64,000 bases of DNA, taken from Leptothermofonsia sichuanensis E412. Lineage in GTDB: Bacteria; Cyanobacteriota; Cyanobacteriia; Leptolyngbyales; Leptolyngbyaceae. The position numbers and the translations under genes were made by a program. The notes below the pieces were generated by a model that saw nothing but the letters and a program-made list of their open reading frames with translations, did no database searches and was not told where the DNA came from. Every line of letters starts with the position of its first letter. Position 1 is the stretch's first letter. Location: NCBI RefSeq assembly GCF_019891175.1, contig NZ_CP072600.1, positions 6,138,001 to 6,202,000 of the forward strand, given 5' to 3'. This document shows positions 22,271 to 29,522 of this stretch, one piece after another.

Positions 22271-22291
22271 CTCACTTCATCGCTAGCTGCG

Positions 22292-22378
22292 GCATAACAA
22301 CCCTGCTGGAGCGGACTGAAGAGAGATCTTGGTGGAGTTGCGAAGGCTCTTTGCAGCCGCTCAACAGGAACGTTAGAT
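22292..22378 (+). other. integron attC recombination site (aldo/keto reductase cassette)
   Basis: Plus-strand reading: R'' GCATAAC (22292-22298, one mismatch) and R' GTTAGAT (22372-22378, perfect GTTRRRY). The arms CCTGCTGGAGCGGACTG and CAGCCGCTCAACAGG pair with unpaired C and A bases on the same strand, matching the extrahelical-base layout of attC. Length 87 bp. It follows the reductase stop codon closely. Orientation is opposite to the attC at 17869, so the array has been rearranged. Confidence 0.85.
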
Positions 22379-22724
22379 CCGGGAAATACCAGGTTGGTGT
22401 CTTTTGTTGACCGTTCGCTGTATAAGTTCGATTTGCTGTAATAGGGTGTTTAATAATTGCATCAGATATGCCAATCTCCAGAACTTCCAGCCGAAAGCGA
22501 CGTTTCTGACCCTCTGCACCAAAAATTTTGCAGACCTCACAAAGTCCGTTTTTCACTGAGCATTTTTGCTCGGTTGGATCGCAAACCTTTCCACCCATGC
22601 CGCGTACCAGGGCTTCCATCCACCAGCGCAGGCTTCCCAGGAGGGCGGTTTCGTGGATGCGGTCAACTTTGCCGTCTACGCCACCTGTCCACAAAGGCGT
22701 TAAGGTCTTAATTGTGATGTCCAT
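22373..22724 (-). pseudogene. cmr1: Cmr1 (type III-B CRISPR effector), N-terminal fragment
   Basis: MDITIKTLTPLWTGGVDGK then HETALLGSLRWWMEALVRGMGG is the N-terminal Cmr1 block, followed by a CxxC-type cysteine cluster (CDPTEQKC ... CEVCKIFGAEG) and RRFRLEV, the first part of the RAMP fold. Homology ends at WYFPDL, exactly where the attC core begins; the frame continues to 22272 through attC sequence. Full Cmr1 is roughly 300-550 residues, so about two thirds is missing. No other cmr gene and no CRISPR array is in the window. ATG 22722-22724 is preceded by AAGGA. Confidence 0.85.
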
Positions 22725-24102: not shown

Positions 24103-24849
24103 CTACTTCTGTTTCGCAGCTTCCTGACGGCGCTTGCGAAAGTAACTCAATCCGCCAACCAGCATCAGTCCTCCCAAAACAGGGGGAGTTGGGATAGGGC
24201 GGGGAGGTGCCAGTCTGGCAGATGCAAAAATGCTGAAATCATTGAAGTCATTGTCTTCAGGTTCAGTTCGATAAGCACCATCCTCAAAGGCGATCGCAAC
24301 AATTCCAGCAAACGGATCAGCAGAAGAGAAGTTACCCGGATTTGGAAACGGAGATCCCTCTGAACCAGAGCCAAAGGAACCAAACAGAACTCGCTGGGTT
24401 CCTCCATTCAGAGCATTGGTTGAAAACATACTGGGAACACGAGGTCCGTTGGCCGGTTCTTCAGGAGCTTCACTGAATAGTTCGAGAGTGTAGAGTACTC
24501 CTGCTCGGAATGTAAAGGAGCTTGTACAGTTAAGGACAGCAGCTCCAGGACCACAACTCGCAAACCAATTTGAAGGAGGTGGATCCCCTGGACCGGGCAC
24601 AACATTTGCCTGCCTGATTTCGTCAAACAGAGTGGCTACACGGACTGTGCTTGCTCCCGATTGTTCGGCAACAAATAGAGTTGACCGAAACTGGTTGTTC
24701 GAGAAGGCAAAGCCAAATTCAACAATCGTGTCTGCATCAAACTGAATACCGGAAGTGCCAAAGATATTTGCCGCTTCAGCAGGAGCAGAGAGAATGCCTA
24801 AGACAGCGGTTGCAGTAGTAAGAGAAAGAAGGGATCTGGATAAGTTCAT
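24103..24849 (-). CDS. PTPA/PEP-CTERM-type exported protein
   Basis: Signal peptide MNLSRSLLSLTTATAVLGILSAPAEA, a secreted beta-rich domain with two Cys (NWFASCGPGAAVLNCTSSF), an ED-N-DFNDF stretch, and a C-terminal sorting tail: PTPPVLGGLMLVGGLSYFRKRRQ, that is a short Pro motif, a hydrophobic helix and a basic end. This fits the cyanobacterial PTPA-CTERM variant of the PEP-CTERM/exosortase system, which anchors or processes surface and biofilm-matrix proteins. ATG 24847-24849 has AGGA seven bases upstream. The ligand or role of the domain is unknown. Confidence 0.82.
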   Translation of the reverse strand: MNLSRSLLSLTTATAVLGILSAPAEAANIFGTSGIQFDADTIVEFGFAFSNNQFRSTLFVAEQSGASTVRVATLFDEIRQANVVPGPGDPPPSNWFASCGPGAAVLNCTSSFTFRAGVLYTLELFSEAPEEPANGPRVPSMFSTNALNGGTQRVLFGSFGSGSEGSPFPNPGNFSSADPFAGIVAIAFEDGAYRTEPEDNDFNDFSIFASARLAPPRPIPTPPVLGGLMLVGGLSYFRKRRQEAAKQK

Positions 24850-25675: not shown

Positions 25676-26917
25676 ATGAAAGAACTGCAAGACCGAATTC
25701 AAGCTATCCGTTCCCTGCAAACTGAAATGAACCTCGCCAGGCAGCCTGAGTCTGACCATTTCCCGGAGGAGTCCGGCGATCGGAGTCCGGCAAAGCTTAT
25801 AGAGATGCCAGAACGGGACACGCAAGCCCAACCCACCACCCGATCGCGGCGCAAATCGCCGACCTCCTCGAAGCGCAAAGCCTCCGCCTCGGCTGCCAGA
25901 CAACAACCACCTGTACCCTTTCGCCAGTTGCGGGAGAACCAGGATCTCTTTCAGCAACCATTTGCAGAGGATCTGAAGCGACTGGAAGCTCAGGCTGCAC
26001 GGATTAATCAGGTTGTGGCTGAACGCCCTCAAACTTCAATCGGTCCTGAACCATTGGAGGGCGCGGAGGGGGATGAAGATGAAGCAGTTCAGGAACCACT
26101 GGCCCAGAAGCGCCCCCCAAAAAATGCCACTGGACGGTCAACGGCAACTCGAAAGAAGTCGGCGAAAGGATCGAAGCAGGCACAGCCAACCGATGACGAG
26201 AGGGAGGTTTTATCGATGTCAGCACCCGAAGATGAAGATTCAGAACAACTGAGAACCCAGACAGCACGTATTAACCGTCTACTGGCAGAACTGGAAGAAA
26301 CCATTCGCGAAGCCGGAACAGTGGCAAAGGAGTCTCACTACGAAAGCCAGGGTTCTGAGCCAGCGATCAACCAGCGTCGAGATCAACGTCGAGGTCAACG
26401 ACCGGGCGATCGCAGACCCTCCTCCTCCAGTACTTTCAACGAAACTCCTTTCACCGAAGCGCAATTTGCCAGCTATCCCCAGGGAAATCTGAAAAAGGCT
26501 GTGCGGGAAGCTGCCCAAACTGCTCAGGCTTTGCGGGATCTTTCCCATCACGAACCCTATACCCCGCTGGGTTTCACTGCACCAGACAGTTTTGCCCGCC
26601 CGTACAATGCCTACCCTCACCGCTCTTTGTTAGACCAATTGGGGCTGTGGTTGCGAGGGTGCTTCCAGGTTCCCCGTAAACCCCTGGACAAATTAGGAGA
26701 TGCCTTTTTGTGGATTGTGATTGCCGGGGTGATCCGTGTCGGTTCGCGGTTTCTGATGGCAACCTACCCCTCCTACTCTCCGTTGATCATAGTTCTGATG
26801 CTGGCTCCAGCGGCATGTGCTATCTATCTGGCTCTGTTTGTCCCCAAAGCCGGGTTCGTGTCAGTTTACCGACTGTTTCTGATTATGCTGGGGCTTTTCC
26901 TGGGAGGAAGGCTCTAA
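25676..26917 (+). CDS. hypothetical protein: coiled coil, disordered middle, C-terminal membrane helices
   Basis: About 414 residues. A short helical start (MKELQDRIQAIRSLQTEMNLA) is followed by a long polar region rich in Arg, Lys, Ser, Gln and Glu with two related helical words (LKRLEAQAARINQVVAE and LRTQTARINRLLAELEE), then a helical segment (LKKAVREAAQTAQALRDLS) and three hydrophobic segments from about residue 345 to the end (AFLWIVIAGVIRV, LIIVLMLAPAACAIYLALFV, VYRLFLIMLGLFLG). I know no named family for it. It leads a four-gene, same-strand group; the RINxLLAE repeats suggest oligomerisation. ATG 25676 is chosen because sequence before it lacks coding character. Confidence 0.6.
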   Translation: MKELQDRIQAIRSLQTEMNLARQPESDHFPEESGDRSPAKLIEMPERDTQAQPTTRSRRKSPTSSKRKASASAARQQPPVPFRQLRENQDLFQQPFAEDLKRLEAQAARINQVVAERPQTSIGPEPLEGAEGDEDEAVQEPLAQKRPPKNATGRSTATRKKSAKGSKQAQPTDDEREVLSMSAPEDEDSEQLRTQTARINRLLAELEETIREAGTVAKESHYESQGSEPAINQRRDQRRGQRPGDRRPSSSSTFNETPFTEAQFASYPQGNLKKAVREAAQTAQALRDLSHHEPYTPLGFTAPDSFARPYNAYPHRSLLDQLGLWLRGCFQVPRKPLDKLGDAFLWIVIAGVIRVGSRFLMATYPSYSPLIIVLMLAPAACAIYLALFVPKAGFVSVYRLFLIMLGLFLGGRL

Positions 26918-27152
26918 ATACGACCTCCCTTTGAGCGAAAACCTCTTTGCAGGAGACAACTTTTGCGTCATAGGGAAATACCCCCATTGCTTGATATAGC
27001 CGGGGACAGGGAAGAAAGGATGACAGGAACAGGGATTGAGCATTCTAATTTGTCCTGACCTGGATGGCTTCGCTACATACCCACAATGCCTGATATAAGC
27101 CAGATCTTTTTCTGGGCGGAAGGCTCTTAAACGATTAATCCTGGAGAAACCA
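26918..27152. repeat. spacer with internal direct repeat
   Basis: Two related words, TACCCCCATTGCTTGATATA and TACCCACAATGCCTGATATA, lie about 100 bp apart (around 26979 and 27079). Between them is a GGGACAGGGAAGAAAGGATG stretch with the same order of words as 1300-1362. Non-coding. Confidence 0.55.
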
Positions 27153-27545
27153 ATGAACAACCGGAAATTGTATCGTGTCATTCCGAAGCAGATCGTAGCG
27201 GGTGGCTCGGCACTGCTGGCGGTGGCTCTGCTGATGGATTTTCATGTTTTGCCCTCTTTTGGGAGTCGAAAAAATGGTTCAGAAGCGTGCCAGCGTGTGG
27301 TGCAGTCTCAAGCCCGGTTATCCAGAGAGCAACTGGCTCGCCTGCTGACCGTGCCTGAGGGCGATCGCAAACAGAAGGTGCGAGAAATTTTGAAAGATCC
27401 CTACTGCGAATTGTCTAACCTGCAAATTCGGGCAGGTGCCCCTGCTCAACGTGAAGCCTATCCCATGGAGTTTGACCCCCAAACCTGGCTGGTCGTTCTC
27501 TACGAAGGAGAGCAGTATGCCGGATACCGAATCAATGCTCGCTAG
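27153..27545 (+). CDS. hypothetical single-pass membrane/exported protein (130 aa)
   Basis: ATG 27153 follows CTGGAGAAACCA. Basic start, then a hydrophobic helix at about residues 13-32 (IVAGGSALLAVALLMDFHVL), then a small extracytoplasmic domain with two Cys (EACQRVVQ and DPYCELSNL) that could form a disulphide, and a PQTWLVVLYEGEQYAGYRI end. Family not recognised. Second gene of the group; the next gene overlaps it or follows closely. Confidence 0.6.
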   Translation: MNNRKLYRVIPKQIVAGGSALLAVALLMDFHVLPSFGSRKNGSEACQRVVQSQARLSREQLARLLTVPEGDRKQKVREILKDPYCELSNLQIRAGAPAQREAYPMEFDPQTWLVVLYEGEQYAGYRINAR

Positions 27546-28068
27546 GGATTGCAAATTCAACCAGGTTCATCATGTCATCGGGGGAAGAATCCGATTCAGG
27601 TTGGGGGTACCCGCTGCCTTTGAAAGCGGGTTCAGAATGGCTCTGCTGTTGGCTGTCCTGTTACTGCCGCTGGGGTGTAGCCAACCAGTTCCGGAACCAC
27701 CGATTACGCTCAAACTGTATCAGTCCTGGGAGTTGCAGCCGGGCGACACCATTGCTGGGCGACGGGTCCTGGGCGGGTTAGGAGATATATCCATAGCTCT
27801 GGAGGGTAACAATGTCTATGCCCCCTTTAGAGGCAAAACCCAGCGTGACAGGGGAAACTGTCTGATTTTTTCCAGCCCGGAGGTTCCGGCTTATTTGTTT
27901 CGTCTATGTGGACTGGATAACCCCCGCTTCGGCACGGTTAACCAGGGAGATGCCCTTGGCAGGGGGCGATCGCTGCAATTTGCGGCACTGCGTAAACAAC
28001 CCAATGGCACCTGGGCGATCGTTGAGCCTGCCAAAGAAATTCTGGAACGAACCCTGACTCCCTTATGA
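27517..28068 (+). CDS. hypothetical lipoprotein with an LytM-like beta fold
   Basis: A lipobox LLPLGC near codon 54 marks a lipoprotein; after it an extracytoplasmic domain with VYAPFRGKT, NCLIFSSPEVPAYLFRLCGL, TVNQGDALGRG and LQFAALRKQPNGTWAIVEP. The order of strands and the xVxxGDxLGxG-like turn resemble degenerate LytM/M23 or biotinyl-lipoyl-like barrels, but the metal-binding His and Asp of M23 are not seen, so it would be non-enzymatic. Start ATG 27517 (GGAG 8 bases upstream, overlapping the previous gene) is preferred for its basic n-region RIRFR; ATG 27637 is the alternative. The stop overlaps the next start (ATGA). Confidence 0.55.
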   Translation: MPDTESMLARDCKFNQVHHVIGGRIRFRLGVPAAFESGFRMALLLAVLLLPLGCSQPVPEPPITLKLYQSWELQPGDTIAGRRVLGGLGDISIALEGNNVYAPFRGKTQRDRGNCLIFSSPEVPAYLFRLCGLDNPRFGTVNQGDALGRGRSLQFAALRKQPNGTWAIVEPAKEILERTLTPL

Positions 28069-29522
28069 ATGCTTCTTCCAAAGTAGTTTCTTCTCAGGTC
28101 GTTGCTTCTAAAACTGGAGTAGACCTCCGACCATCATTCAGCCCCAAAATTCGGAGCGTGACAGAAAAAACGCCTTCGGCCAGAAAACGGCGACAGTTGA
28201 AGGCGGCTTTGCCCTCTGGTCCTCTGGTTGTTGTGGACGAGAGGATTACCACTCACCAGGGGAGAACCTACGGAGCACTTTTCTCGGAACCAATTCCTGA
28301 ACCCCTGAATAGGGGATTTGAACCTGCCACTCCAGTGAAGTCCTGGCAACTCTGGTTCCATGGTCTGTTTACCATTCTCAGCCTGTTTACTATTGGTTTG
28401 GGTCTTACGCCCCCTGCCCTGGCAACCAACAGTTTTGGTGCACTGGATTTCTCCCCTCCCTCCAATGTTTCTTCAGGAAACGATACTGCCTACTCCACTT
28501 CCAGTCCGGAGTTATCCCACCCATCTGCCCCAGACGCTGCCCCGGAACCCGCCCCGGAATCTGATCTGGACACTAAACCTGAGTCAGACATATCTTCTGT
28601 GCCAGAACTGGCTCAGGCAGAAACTCGCCCTCCTGCAACCCGGGCAGATTCTTTTTCCCAGGCAAAGTCACCTCCGTCTTCTGTTCCTTCCCCATTCGTG
28701 TTTCCCGATTCTCCCCCAGCAGAACCGCCATCACCTGACACTTCTTCCTCAGATGGGTTGAGTTTTTCGCCCTCTGGTGCCCCTGCCACCCCGCTGCCCA
28801 CAAAGCCTGAATCTAATCCTGCGATGATTCCCTCTGCTCCTGCCAGCCCTGGTTCTTCCAATTCTGCCCGACTGGATGACATCTTCAGAGGGGGGGCAGA
28901 TTCTCTGGTTGCCCGCACGGTTGGTCATGCCGAAGGCACGCGCAACCCGGATGGGAGCAAGACTCGCGCTTATCAGGGGCATTCCGATCCCGGTAATGGG
29001 GTCTGGAATTTGGGTAGTTTTTCATTTCAGCATTGTCGAGAGTATGGCTGTTCAACCCCTGAACAGGCTGATGTTCACCAACTCAATCGGTTAAGGGGAC
29101 AAACTGAAAAGCTGCGTCAGCGAACCGCTGCTTTAGGAATCAACATGACACTTCTGGAAGAGTTAAATGGAATTGATCTGGCAAACCAGGCTCCTCTGGC
29201 TGCCCTGGGACAACCTGGCTACCCTGAATGGCTCAAGCAGGCCCATGATAAAGGATTGAGAGGAGAGAAAGCTATCTTGTGGGCGCGAGTCAGTTCTTTC
29301 TGGGATCCCGGTCGGAATGGCTGGAATGCTCCTGGGCTGGGTAATACCGAATCTCGCATTGAGCATGACCAGAACCGGCGACTGAAGGCGATCGCCCGTG
29401 CCCTGGACATTTATCAACAGCAGGTTGCGGCGGGCAAAATTCCCCATGCTCAACCCGAGCAGAAGGTTGCTGCCACACCATCCCATGAGTGGGCGGATGG
29501 AGGAGATGGGGGTGAGGGGTGA
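28065..29522 (+). CDS. hypothetical exported protein with lysozyme-like C-terminal domain
   Basis: About 485 residues. A 95-residue basic N-terminus, a hydrophobic signal/anchor (about residues 98-118, FTILSLFTIGLGLTPPALA), a long Pro/Ser/Glu-rich linker to about residue 270, then a globular domain: DSLVARTVGHAEGTRNPDG, YQGHSDPGNGVWNLGSFSFQH, and an alpha-helical end with AILWARVSSFWDPGRNGWNAPG. The GHAEGTR and H-D-P-G-N region looks like an active site of a muramidase or transglycosylase-like enzyme acting on peptidoglycan; this is inference from motif style. ATG 28065 overlaps the preceding stop, implying translational coupling. Last gene of the group. Confidence 0.55.
   Translation: MNASSKVVSSQVVASKTGVDLRPSFSPKIRSVTEKTPSARKRRQLKAALPSGPLVVVDERITTHQGRTYGALFSEPIPEPLNRGFEPATPVKSWQLWFHGLFTILSLFTIGLGLTPPALATNSFGALDFSPPSNVSSGNDTAYSTSSPELSHPSAPDAAPEPAPESDLDTKPESDISSVPELAQAETRPPATRADSFSQAKSPPSSVPSPFVFPDSPPAEPPSPDTSSSDGLSFSPSGAPATPLPTKPESNPAMIPSAPASPGSSNSARLDDIFRGGADSLVARTVGHAEGTRNPDGSKTRAYQGHSDPGNGVWNLGSFSFQHCREYGCSTPEQADVHQLNRLRGQTEKLRQRTAALGINMTLLEELNGIDLANQAPLAALGQPGYPEWLKQAHDKGLRGEKAILWARVSSFWDPGRNGWNAPGLGNTESRIEHDQNRRLKAIARALDIYQQQVAAGKIPHAQPEQKVAATPSHEWADGGDGGEG

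What the first reader, a model, noticed from the sequence alone, without database searches (positions are those of the whole stretch)
25676..29522. Unrecognised four-gene group of envelope proteins ending in a lysozyme-like domain
Genes read in the same direction with coupling at the last two junctions (ATGA overlap): a coiled-coil membrane protein, a single-pass protein with paired Cys, a lipoprotein with an LytM-like barrel lacking metal ligands, and an exported protein with a muramidase-like GHAEGTR / H-D-P-G-N domain. A non-enzymatic LytM partner beside a wall hydrolase is a common activator-enzyme theme, so this may be a cell-wall remodelling or secretion machine.
Basis: inference. Interest (0 to 1): 0.6.

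Follow-up and report, generated by a model that had tools for sequence, protein, structure and literature searches.

The report
Cyanobacterial wall-cutter and regulator gene group
Four neighbouring genes in a cyanobacterium look like an unnamed cell-wall remodelling unit: a lysozyme-like cutting enzyme, a dead-enzyme relative that probably switches it on or off, and two membrane proteins that probably anchor and steer the pair.

Summary
None of the four window proteins has a significant Pfam, NCBIfam or PHROG match. The lipoprotein P3 is predicted as a LytM fold (PrgK LytM E 7e-4; LytU Z 10.3, DipM and EnvC 9.7); none of 54 rows keeps the whole metal site. P4 ends in a confidently modelled domain (pLDDT 94.9); its 33 best VIA rows are all lysozyme-superfamily enzymes, Z up to 8.5, Foldseek statistics are weak; E290 and D308 are invariant in 59 of 59 rows. 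The genes are a module: P2 and P3 occur in the same 9 of 244 cyanobacterial genomes, all with P4; P1, P2 and P3 lie upstream of P4 in 41 of 70 named loci; P2 and P3 are one protein in one genome. The P4 domain is fused to M23 peptidase domains in one cassette, one plasmid and two viral contigs. Best explanation: a degenerate LytM lipoprotein controls a lysozyme-type wall enzyme, held by P2 and P1. Secretion or conjugation is not supported. The process served is unknown.

The parts
25676..26917 (+). P1: 413 aa; fast-evolving N-terminal part (probably cytoplasmic), C-terminal hydrophobic domain of about three passes
   Evidence: relative in 39 of 42 genomes of the order; no significant Pfam/NCBIfam/PHROG match
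27002..27070 (.). dispersed repeat in the P1-P2 gap, not part of the coding module
   Evidence: at least 39 other places in the same genome at 81-90% identity, 40 of 210 candidates scored; no unusual RNA fold
27153..27545 (+). P2: 130 aa, single-pass, probably extracytoplasmic domain with two invariant Cys
   Evidence: relative in 40 of 42 genomes of the order; fused to P3 in G049
27535..28068 (+). P3: lipoprotein with degenerate LytM domain; overlaps P2 by 11 bases
   Evidence: relative in 41 of 42 genomes of the order
28065..29522 (+). P4: exported protein with proline-rich linker and C-terminal lysozyme-like domain; overlaps P3 by ATGA. GTG at 28335 is an alternative start shortly before the signal-like segment
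   Evidence: relative in 40 of 42 genomes of the order; residues 36-241 have a 38% identical match in G025, which favours the long form
28845..29447 (+). P4 lysozyme-like domain (residues 261-461); candidate catalytic residues E290 and D308

Best explanation
An envelope module that controls a peptidoglycan-cutting enzyme. P4 is exported and its C-terminal domain, a lysozyme-superfamily fold with E290 as probable acid and D308 as second carboxylate, cuts the glycan strand. P3, a lipoprotein with a LytM fold that cannot hold the catalytic metal, binds P4 and raises or lowers its activity. P2, anchored by one helix with a small domain (probable disulfide) outside the membrane, forms a unit with P3. 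P1, a membrane protein with a long, variable and probably cytoplasmic part, works with P2 and probably passes position or state from inside the cell to the P2-P3-P4 complex. Shown by computation: the predicted folds, loss of the metal site, invariant acids, shared occurrence and the P2-P3 fusion. Inferred: binding, regulation, catalysis, disulfide, topology and role of P1.
For: P3: Foldseek best hit PrgK LytM E 7e-4, VIA Z 10.3 to 9.6 to LytU, EnvC, DipM, LytM; columns inferred to match metal or active-site residues: first His 0 of 54, Asp 51 of 54, then His 3 of 54 and His 20 of 54. P4: pLDDT 94.9; VIA rows 1-33 all lysozyme-superfamily enzymes, MltE Z 8.5, P22 lysozyme 8.1, GH46 chitosanase 8.0; E290 and D308 59 of 59. 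Module: same 9 of 244 genomes for P2 and P3, all with P4, next to P2-P3 in 8 of the 9; P1+P2+P3 upstream of P4 in 41 of 70 loci; P3/P4 ATGA overlap in 15 of 59 pairs. P2-P3 fused in both copies of G049. P2 tree: the 34 P2 with a P1 in the locus and the 23 without are two sides of one branch, support 99/97, 0 of 500 shuffles, so P1 and P2 go together. P4 domain fused to M23 in L203, L197, L191, L193 and to SLH in L213, L214, L220; in a Microcoleus phage it sits between Amidase_2 and M23 genes. Precedents: DipM's inactive LytM stimulates a lytic transglycosylase and an amidase (PMC10336132, abstract); PrgK's degenerate LytM lowers the activity of its own muramidase domain (PMC11323569, abstract).
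Against: The fold match of P4 is weak: no PDB hit at E <= 0.001, best E 0.51 with probability 0.93, and Z under about 13 can be common for helical models (note). P4 is not tied to the cassette: 14 of 70 P4 loci have none of P1-P3 upstream, 11 of 20 P4 genomes lack P2 and P3, and in the P4 tree cassette P4 need 11 changes. In G029 and G030 P3 and P4 lie in different loci, beside different P2 copies (G009 looks alike, but its contig ends just after P3). No direct evidence of P3-P4 contact; P2-P3 fusion was seen in one genome only. P1 and P2 were not modelled. Profile comparison of P3 with single M23 sequences was weak (probability 4.5 and 0.1%).
Confidence: 0.58

Rival explanations
1. P4 is a non-catalytic or off-target lysozyme relative: a wall-binding or scaffold domain (as recalled for the SpmX muramidase domain), or an enzyme on another polysaccharide such as sheath material (GH46 chitosanases are among the structural neighbours).
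For: GH46 chitosanases (Z 8.0, 7.8) and the SpmX muramidase domain (Z 7.2) are among the VIA rows; E290 and D308 are 18 residues apart, a spacing recalled for GH46.
Against: Both acids invariant in 59 of 59 rows, nine of them from viral contigs; repeated fusion to, or neighbourhood with, peptidoglycan peptidases and an amidase.
Confidence: 0.17
2. A tamed phage lysis cassette: P4 from an endolysin, P1 holin-like, P2 and P3 spanin-like, kept for programmed lysis or release of material.
For: The P4 domain is 56% identical in viral contig L009, upstream of genes matching terminase, head-tail adaptor and major head protein; viral P4 fall at several places in the P4 tree. The order membrane protein, single-pass protein, overlapping lipoprotein, wall enzyme recalls lysis cassettes (recalled).
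Against: P3 is a LytM fold, which I do not know of any spanin; P1 has a long variable part and no significant phage family match; the six flanking window proteins scanned are not phage genes; found in 39-41 of 42 genomes of the order, with an old duplication.
Confidence: 0.1
3. A wall-opening accessory of a secretion, pilus or conjugation machine, as VirB1 (recalled) or PrgK is for type IV secretion.
For: PrgK, with LytM plus lysozyme-like domains, is the best Foldseek match of P3; a Leptolyngbya boryana plasmid carries a P4-like gene near an M23-DUF2927 gene.
Against: No such genes among the six flanking window proteins scanned; neighbours differ between genera (most not annotated); all five plasmid records with a match are typed non-mobilizable.
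Confidence: 0.1
4. Unrelated neighbours that happen to lie together.
For: P1 is 235 bases away with a repeat between; P4 also occurs without the others.
Against: Shared occurrence, synteny, fusion and the P2 tree.
Confidence: 0.02

Closest known systems
DipM of Caulobacter crescentus (degenerate LytM factor)
   Same: Inactive LytM domain that controls autolysins, among them lytic transglycosylases (PMC10336132, abstract); fold match Z 9.7
   Different: DipM acts on several enzymes at division; here the likely target is the next gene, of a family without a name in the libraries searched, with two unnamed membrane proteins
PrgK of pCF10
   Same: Degenerate LytM together with a lysozyme-like domain that it regulates (PMC11323569, abstract); best Foldseek match of P3
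   Different: One polypeptide in a Gram-positive conjugation system; here separate genes in cyanobacteria, no conjugation genes seen beside the window copy
EnvC/FtsEX/amidase axis
   Same: Membrane input, degenerate LytM, wall hydrolase (pathway recalled); fold match to EnvC Z 9.7
   Different: No ABC transporter match in the module, and a glycosidase-type instead of an amidase partner
Alr3353 (LytM factor) and AmiC1 of Anabaena
   Same: Cyanobacterial LytM factor that interacts with a wall enzyme (PMC6463045, passages)
   Different: Partner is an amidase; P2/P3 were found in only 9 of 244 cyanobacterial genomes sampled
Lysozyme superfamily (GH24, GH46, MltE/MltF)
   Same: Predicted fold, Glu at the end of the first long helix
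   Different: 8-14% identity in VIA rows 1-33; no Pfam family

Membership tests
Degenerate LytM (dLytM) factor | LytM/M23 fold | tested here: met
   E 7e-4 to PrgK LytM, Z 10.3 to LytU (2.8 A over 99 residues), on a predicted model of pLDDT 88.9
Degenerate LytM (dLytM) factor | Metal site incomplete | tested here: met
   no His in 54 rows at the first ligand column, 20 of 54 at the last; columns assigned by motif and spacing, helped by the weak alignment
Degenerate LytM (dLytM) factor | Located in the cell envelope outside the cytoplasm | tested here: inconclusive
   Hydrophobic segment, lipobox-type Cys in 53 of 54 rows and fusion to P2; no experiment
Degenerate LytM (dLytM) factor | Changes the activity of a wall hydrolase | not testable with these tools
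   needs purified proteins
Lysozyme superfamily | Fold | tested here: inconclusive
   VIA rows 1-33 all of this superfamily, Z up to 8.5; Foldseek best E only 0.51. Favourable but below strict thresholds for helical models
Lysozyme superfamily | Catalytic Glu at the end of the first long helix | tested here: met
   helix 21-30 of the model ends in Glu, E290 59 of 59; VIA ranges 20-190 on T4 lysozyme 1-164 put it at T4 Glu11 if no gap lies between (T4 numbering recalled). Position only, not catalysis
Lysozyme superfamily | Glycosidase or transglycosylase activity | not testable with these tools
   none
Any Pfam, NCBIfam or PHROG family (window proteins) | Match over the curated cut-off, or a significant E-value | tested here: not met
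   best E 0.052 (P3, DUF1894, under its cut-off)
EnvC-FtsEX system | ABC transporter FtsE/FtsX in the module | tested here: not met
   P1 and P2 give no significant Pfam match
Type IV secretion or conjugation locus | Transfer genes nearby | tested here: inconclusive
   none among six flanking window proteins scanned; neighbours elsewhere vary and were mostly not annotated
Phage lysis cassette | Endolysin-type relative in phages | tested here: met
   sequence relatives of the P4 domain in phage records and viral contigs; their lysis role is inferred from position
Phage lysis cassette | Holin | tested here: inconclusive
   P1 has about three hydrophobic segments but no significant family match

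The most novel reading that the evidence does not exclude
An undescribed membrane-to-wall control system of (mostly) filamentous cyanobacteria: P1 senses or places from the cytoplasm, P2-P3 carry the signal, and a lysozyme of a new family, shared with cyanophages, opens or trims septal or lateral peptidoglycan; an old duplication split it into a P1-bearing and a P1-less version that coexist in many genomes and may serve two sites.
Probability: 0.2. Interest if true: 0.7.

Novelty: new variant of a known kind. Interest (0 to 1): 0.5.

Why it matters
Degenerate LytM factors are known best as amidase activators (recalled). A conserved gene group that pairs one with a lysozyme-type enzyme and two unnamed membrane partners would be a compact system to ask how cells turn a glycan-cutting enzyme on at the right place, in what are, by genus names (recalled), mostly filamentous cyanobacteria; my paper searches found no description of it. 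It also points to four protein families that Pfam, NCBIfam and PHROGs leave blank.

Tried and rejected
Conjugation or secretion link: looked at neighbours, flanking window genes and plasmid records; nothing consistent. PDB sequence search with P4, its profile and the P2 profile gave only hits I take as chance, best E 0.33, 0.73 and 0.47; the P3 profile hit designed 'Cake' proteins over 34 residues (best E 6.5e-10) with no stretch passing on its own, set aside as a repeat effect. Twelve of 51 P2 rows match a POLR3C winged-helix model, best E 0.0007: judged chance, not followed. Direct profile comparison of P3 with single M23 sequences was weak. The idea that cassette P4 form one inherited clade was tested and rejected. 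Promoter and terminator scans were at shuffle level. The repeat in the P1-P2 gap folds no better than shuffles. Paper searches found no description of this gene group: (open-licence PMC papers only). Of papers I saw search listings, the abstracts and section lists of PMC11323569 and PMC10336132 and passages of PMC6403190 and PMC6463045.
Full report
What is there. The window is a stretch of the 6.43 Mb single-contig genome of a cyanobacterium. Four genes lie on the + strand: P1 25676-26917, P2 27153-27545, P3 27535-28068, P4 28065-29522. P2 and P3 overlap by 11 bases, P3 and P4 by ATGA; P1 stands 235 bases off, and that gap holds a repeat with at least 39 further places in the genome (40 of 210 candidates scored). 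Hydropathy: P1 has its hydrophobic segments at residues about 337-410, P2 one region at 9-32, P3 a lipoprotein-type leader, P4 a signal-like segment at about 96-119. Rough dN/dS values against the same genus (L091, or L109 for P4): P1 0.40/1.60, P2 0.13/2.04, P3 0.18/1.85; P4 domain dN 0.11 with dS not computable. This fits selected genes, though dS is near saturation.

No known family by sequence. Pfam, NCBIfam and PHROGs give nothing significant for any of the four, nor do 54 P3 rows (best E 0.017) or 59 P4 rows (best E 0.0086) against Pfam at a convincing level. Of 51 P2 rows, 12 match a winged-helix model, best E 0.0007, which I take as chance.

P3 is a degenerate LytM protein. AlphaFold2 with 54 rows gave pLDDT 88.9. 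The only PDB hit at E <= 0.001 is the LytM domain of PrgK; M23 enzymes, DipM and others follow. VIA gives LytU Z 10.3 (2.8 A, 99 residues), EnvC 9.7, DipM 9.7, LytM 9.6. At the inferred ligand and active-site columns His is present in 0 of 54, Asp in 51 of 54, His in 3 of 54 and His in 20 of 54; the window has G80, D84, S146, Q148. The columns were assigned by motif and spacing with help of a weak profile match.

P4 ends in a lysozyme-like domain. AlphaFold2 with 59 rows gave pLDDT 94.9, pTM 0.91. Foldseek found no PDB hit at E <= 0.001; the two best are a phage endolysin (E 0.51, probability 0.93) and a prophage muramidase (0.59, 0.89). VIA rows 1-33 are all lysozyme-superfamily enzymes: MltE 8.5, MltF 8.4, P22 lysozyme 8.1, GH46 chitosanase 8.0 and so on. 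Z values of this size are not proof for helical models. In the viral library the best match is a 990-residue Krakvirus protein at E 1.2e-7, a sequence relative. G287, E290, G291, T292, R293, H306, D308, N315, G317, S320 and Q322, among others, are invariant in 59 of 59 rows, nine of them from viral contigs.

The context of the P4 domain is peptidoglycan. It is fused to an M23 peptidase domain over Pfam's cut-off in a P4 of genome G049 (L203), a Leptolyngbya plasmid (L197) and two viral contigs (L191, L193), and to SLH domains in three genomes of one family (L213, L214, L220). In Microcoleus phage My-WqHQDG the relative lies between an Amidase_2 gene and M23 genes. In viral contig L009 a relative with 56% identity lies upstream of genes matching terminase, head-tail adaptor and major head protein. 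Other P4-domain proteins scanned, such as L217, L219 and L209, show no second Pfam domain.

The genes form a module. In the order, of 42 genomes P1 is found in 39, P2 in 40, P3 in 41, P4 in 40. In a sample of 244 genomes of the phylum P2 and P3 occur in the same 9, from six families; P4 is in 20 including those 9; in 8 of the 9 P4 is next to P2-P3, not in G068. P1 was not searched in this sample. Of 80 named loci fetched by the P4 domain alone (best 80 of 164 relatives), 10 had under 2.5 kb upstream and were dropped; of 70, 41 have P1+P2+P3 upstream, 9 P2+P3, 3 P1+P2, 3 P2 alone, 14 none (same strand, within 4.5 kb, profile E <= 1e-4). In G049 P2 and P3 are one open frame in both copies. P3/P4 ATGA overlap was seen in 15 of 59 pairs (L148 and L180 give two rows each because P3 is split there); in the others the nearest in-frame ATG lies up to some hundred bases off.

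Two versions. Loci fetched in the order, chosen for having matches, mostly show P1-P2-P3-P4 together, P1-P2(-P3), or P2-P3-P4; rarer are P1-P2-P4, P2-P4, and P1, P2 or P4 alone. A tree of 57 P2 sequences separates the 34 with P1 in the locus from the 23 without by one branch, support 99/97, reached by 0 of 500 shuffles. So P1 and P2 evolve as a pair, and an old duplication gave a P1-less version. The window genome has the P1-bearing version plus a lone P4 elsewhere. P4 itself moves: cassette P4 need 11 changes on a 72-row tree (a chosen subset of loci), and viral rows fall at several places; several branches are long and the bootstrap had not settled.

Mechanism. From these facts I infer that P4 cuts glycan strands, P3 controls it through its LytM groove, P2 holds P3, and P1 links P2 to the inside. 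DipM's inactive LytM stimulates a lytic transglycosylase and an amidase (PMC10336132, abstract), while PrgK's degenerate LytM lowers its neighbouring muramidase (PMC11323569, abstract), so the sign is open. The own genome also has eight near-complete M23 matches and one in two pieces, and several Amidase_3 matches, so the module adds to ordinary wall enzymes. In Anabaena a LytM factor, Alr3353, interacts with the amidase AmiC1 and affects septal nanopores (PMC6463045, passages); a septal role here is only an analogy.

Verdict. A new variant of a known kind, not a new principle.

Noticed in passing
window 27002-27070: Dispersed repeat of about 67 bases in the P1-P2 gap, at least 39 other places in the genome at 81-90% identity; folds no better than shuffles as RNA.
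   Followed up: partly
window 22275-22724 (-): A 150-residue RAMP-superfamily protein (E 5.7e-18), short for a type III CRISPR subunit (recalled); neighbours not checked for CRISPR genes.
   Followed up: no
window 24106-24849 (-): Protein ending in what looks by eye like a PEP-CTERM sorting signal (motif recalled); no Pfam match.
   Followed up: no
L086 9371-10519 (-), G000:C1:4014550-4015128: A second, stand-alone P4-domain protein in the same genome; it groups with other stand-alone copies.
   Followed up: partly
L068-L074, L076, L078, L079: In these loci a response-regulator-like and a cupin-like gene (clusters c4 and c5, read by eye from the translations) lie divergently upstream of P1.
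   Followed up: no
L055-L059: In one genus ExbB/ExbD-like genes (clusters c7, c8, read by eye) follow P4, with phosphate-transport-like genes further on.
   Followed up: no
L199 5776-7144: Microcoleus phage: matches to a second P4 domain lie in two adjacent frames, the second of which also carries an M23 domain.
   Followed up: no
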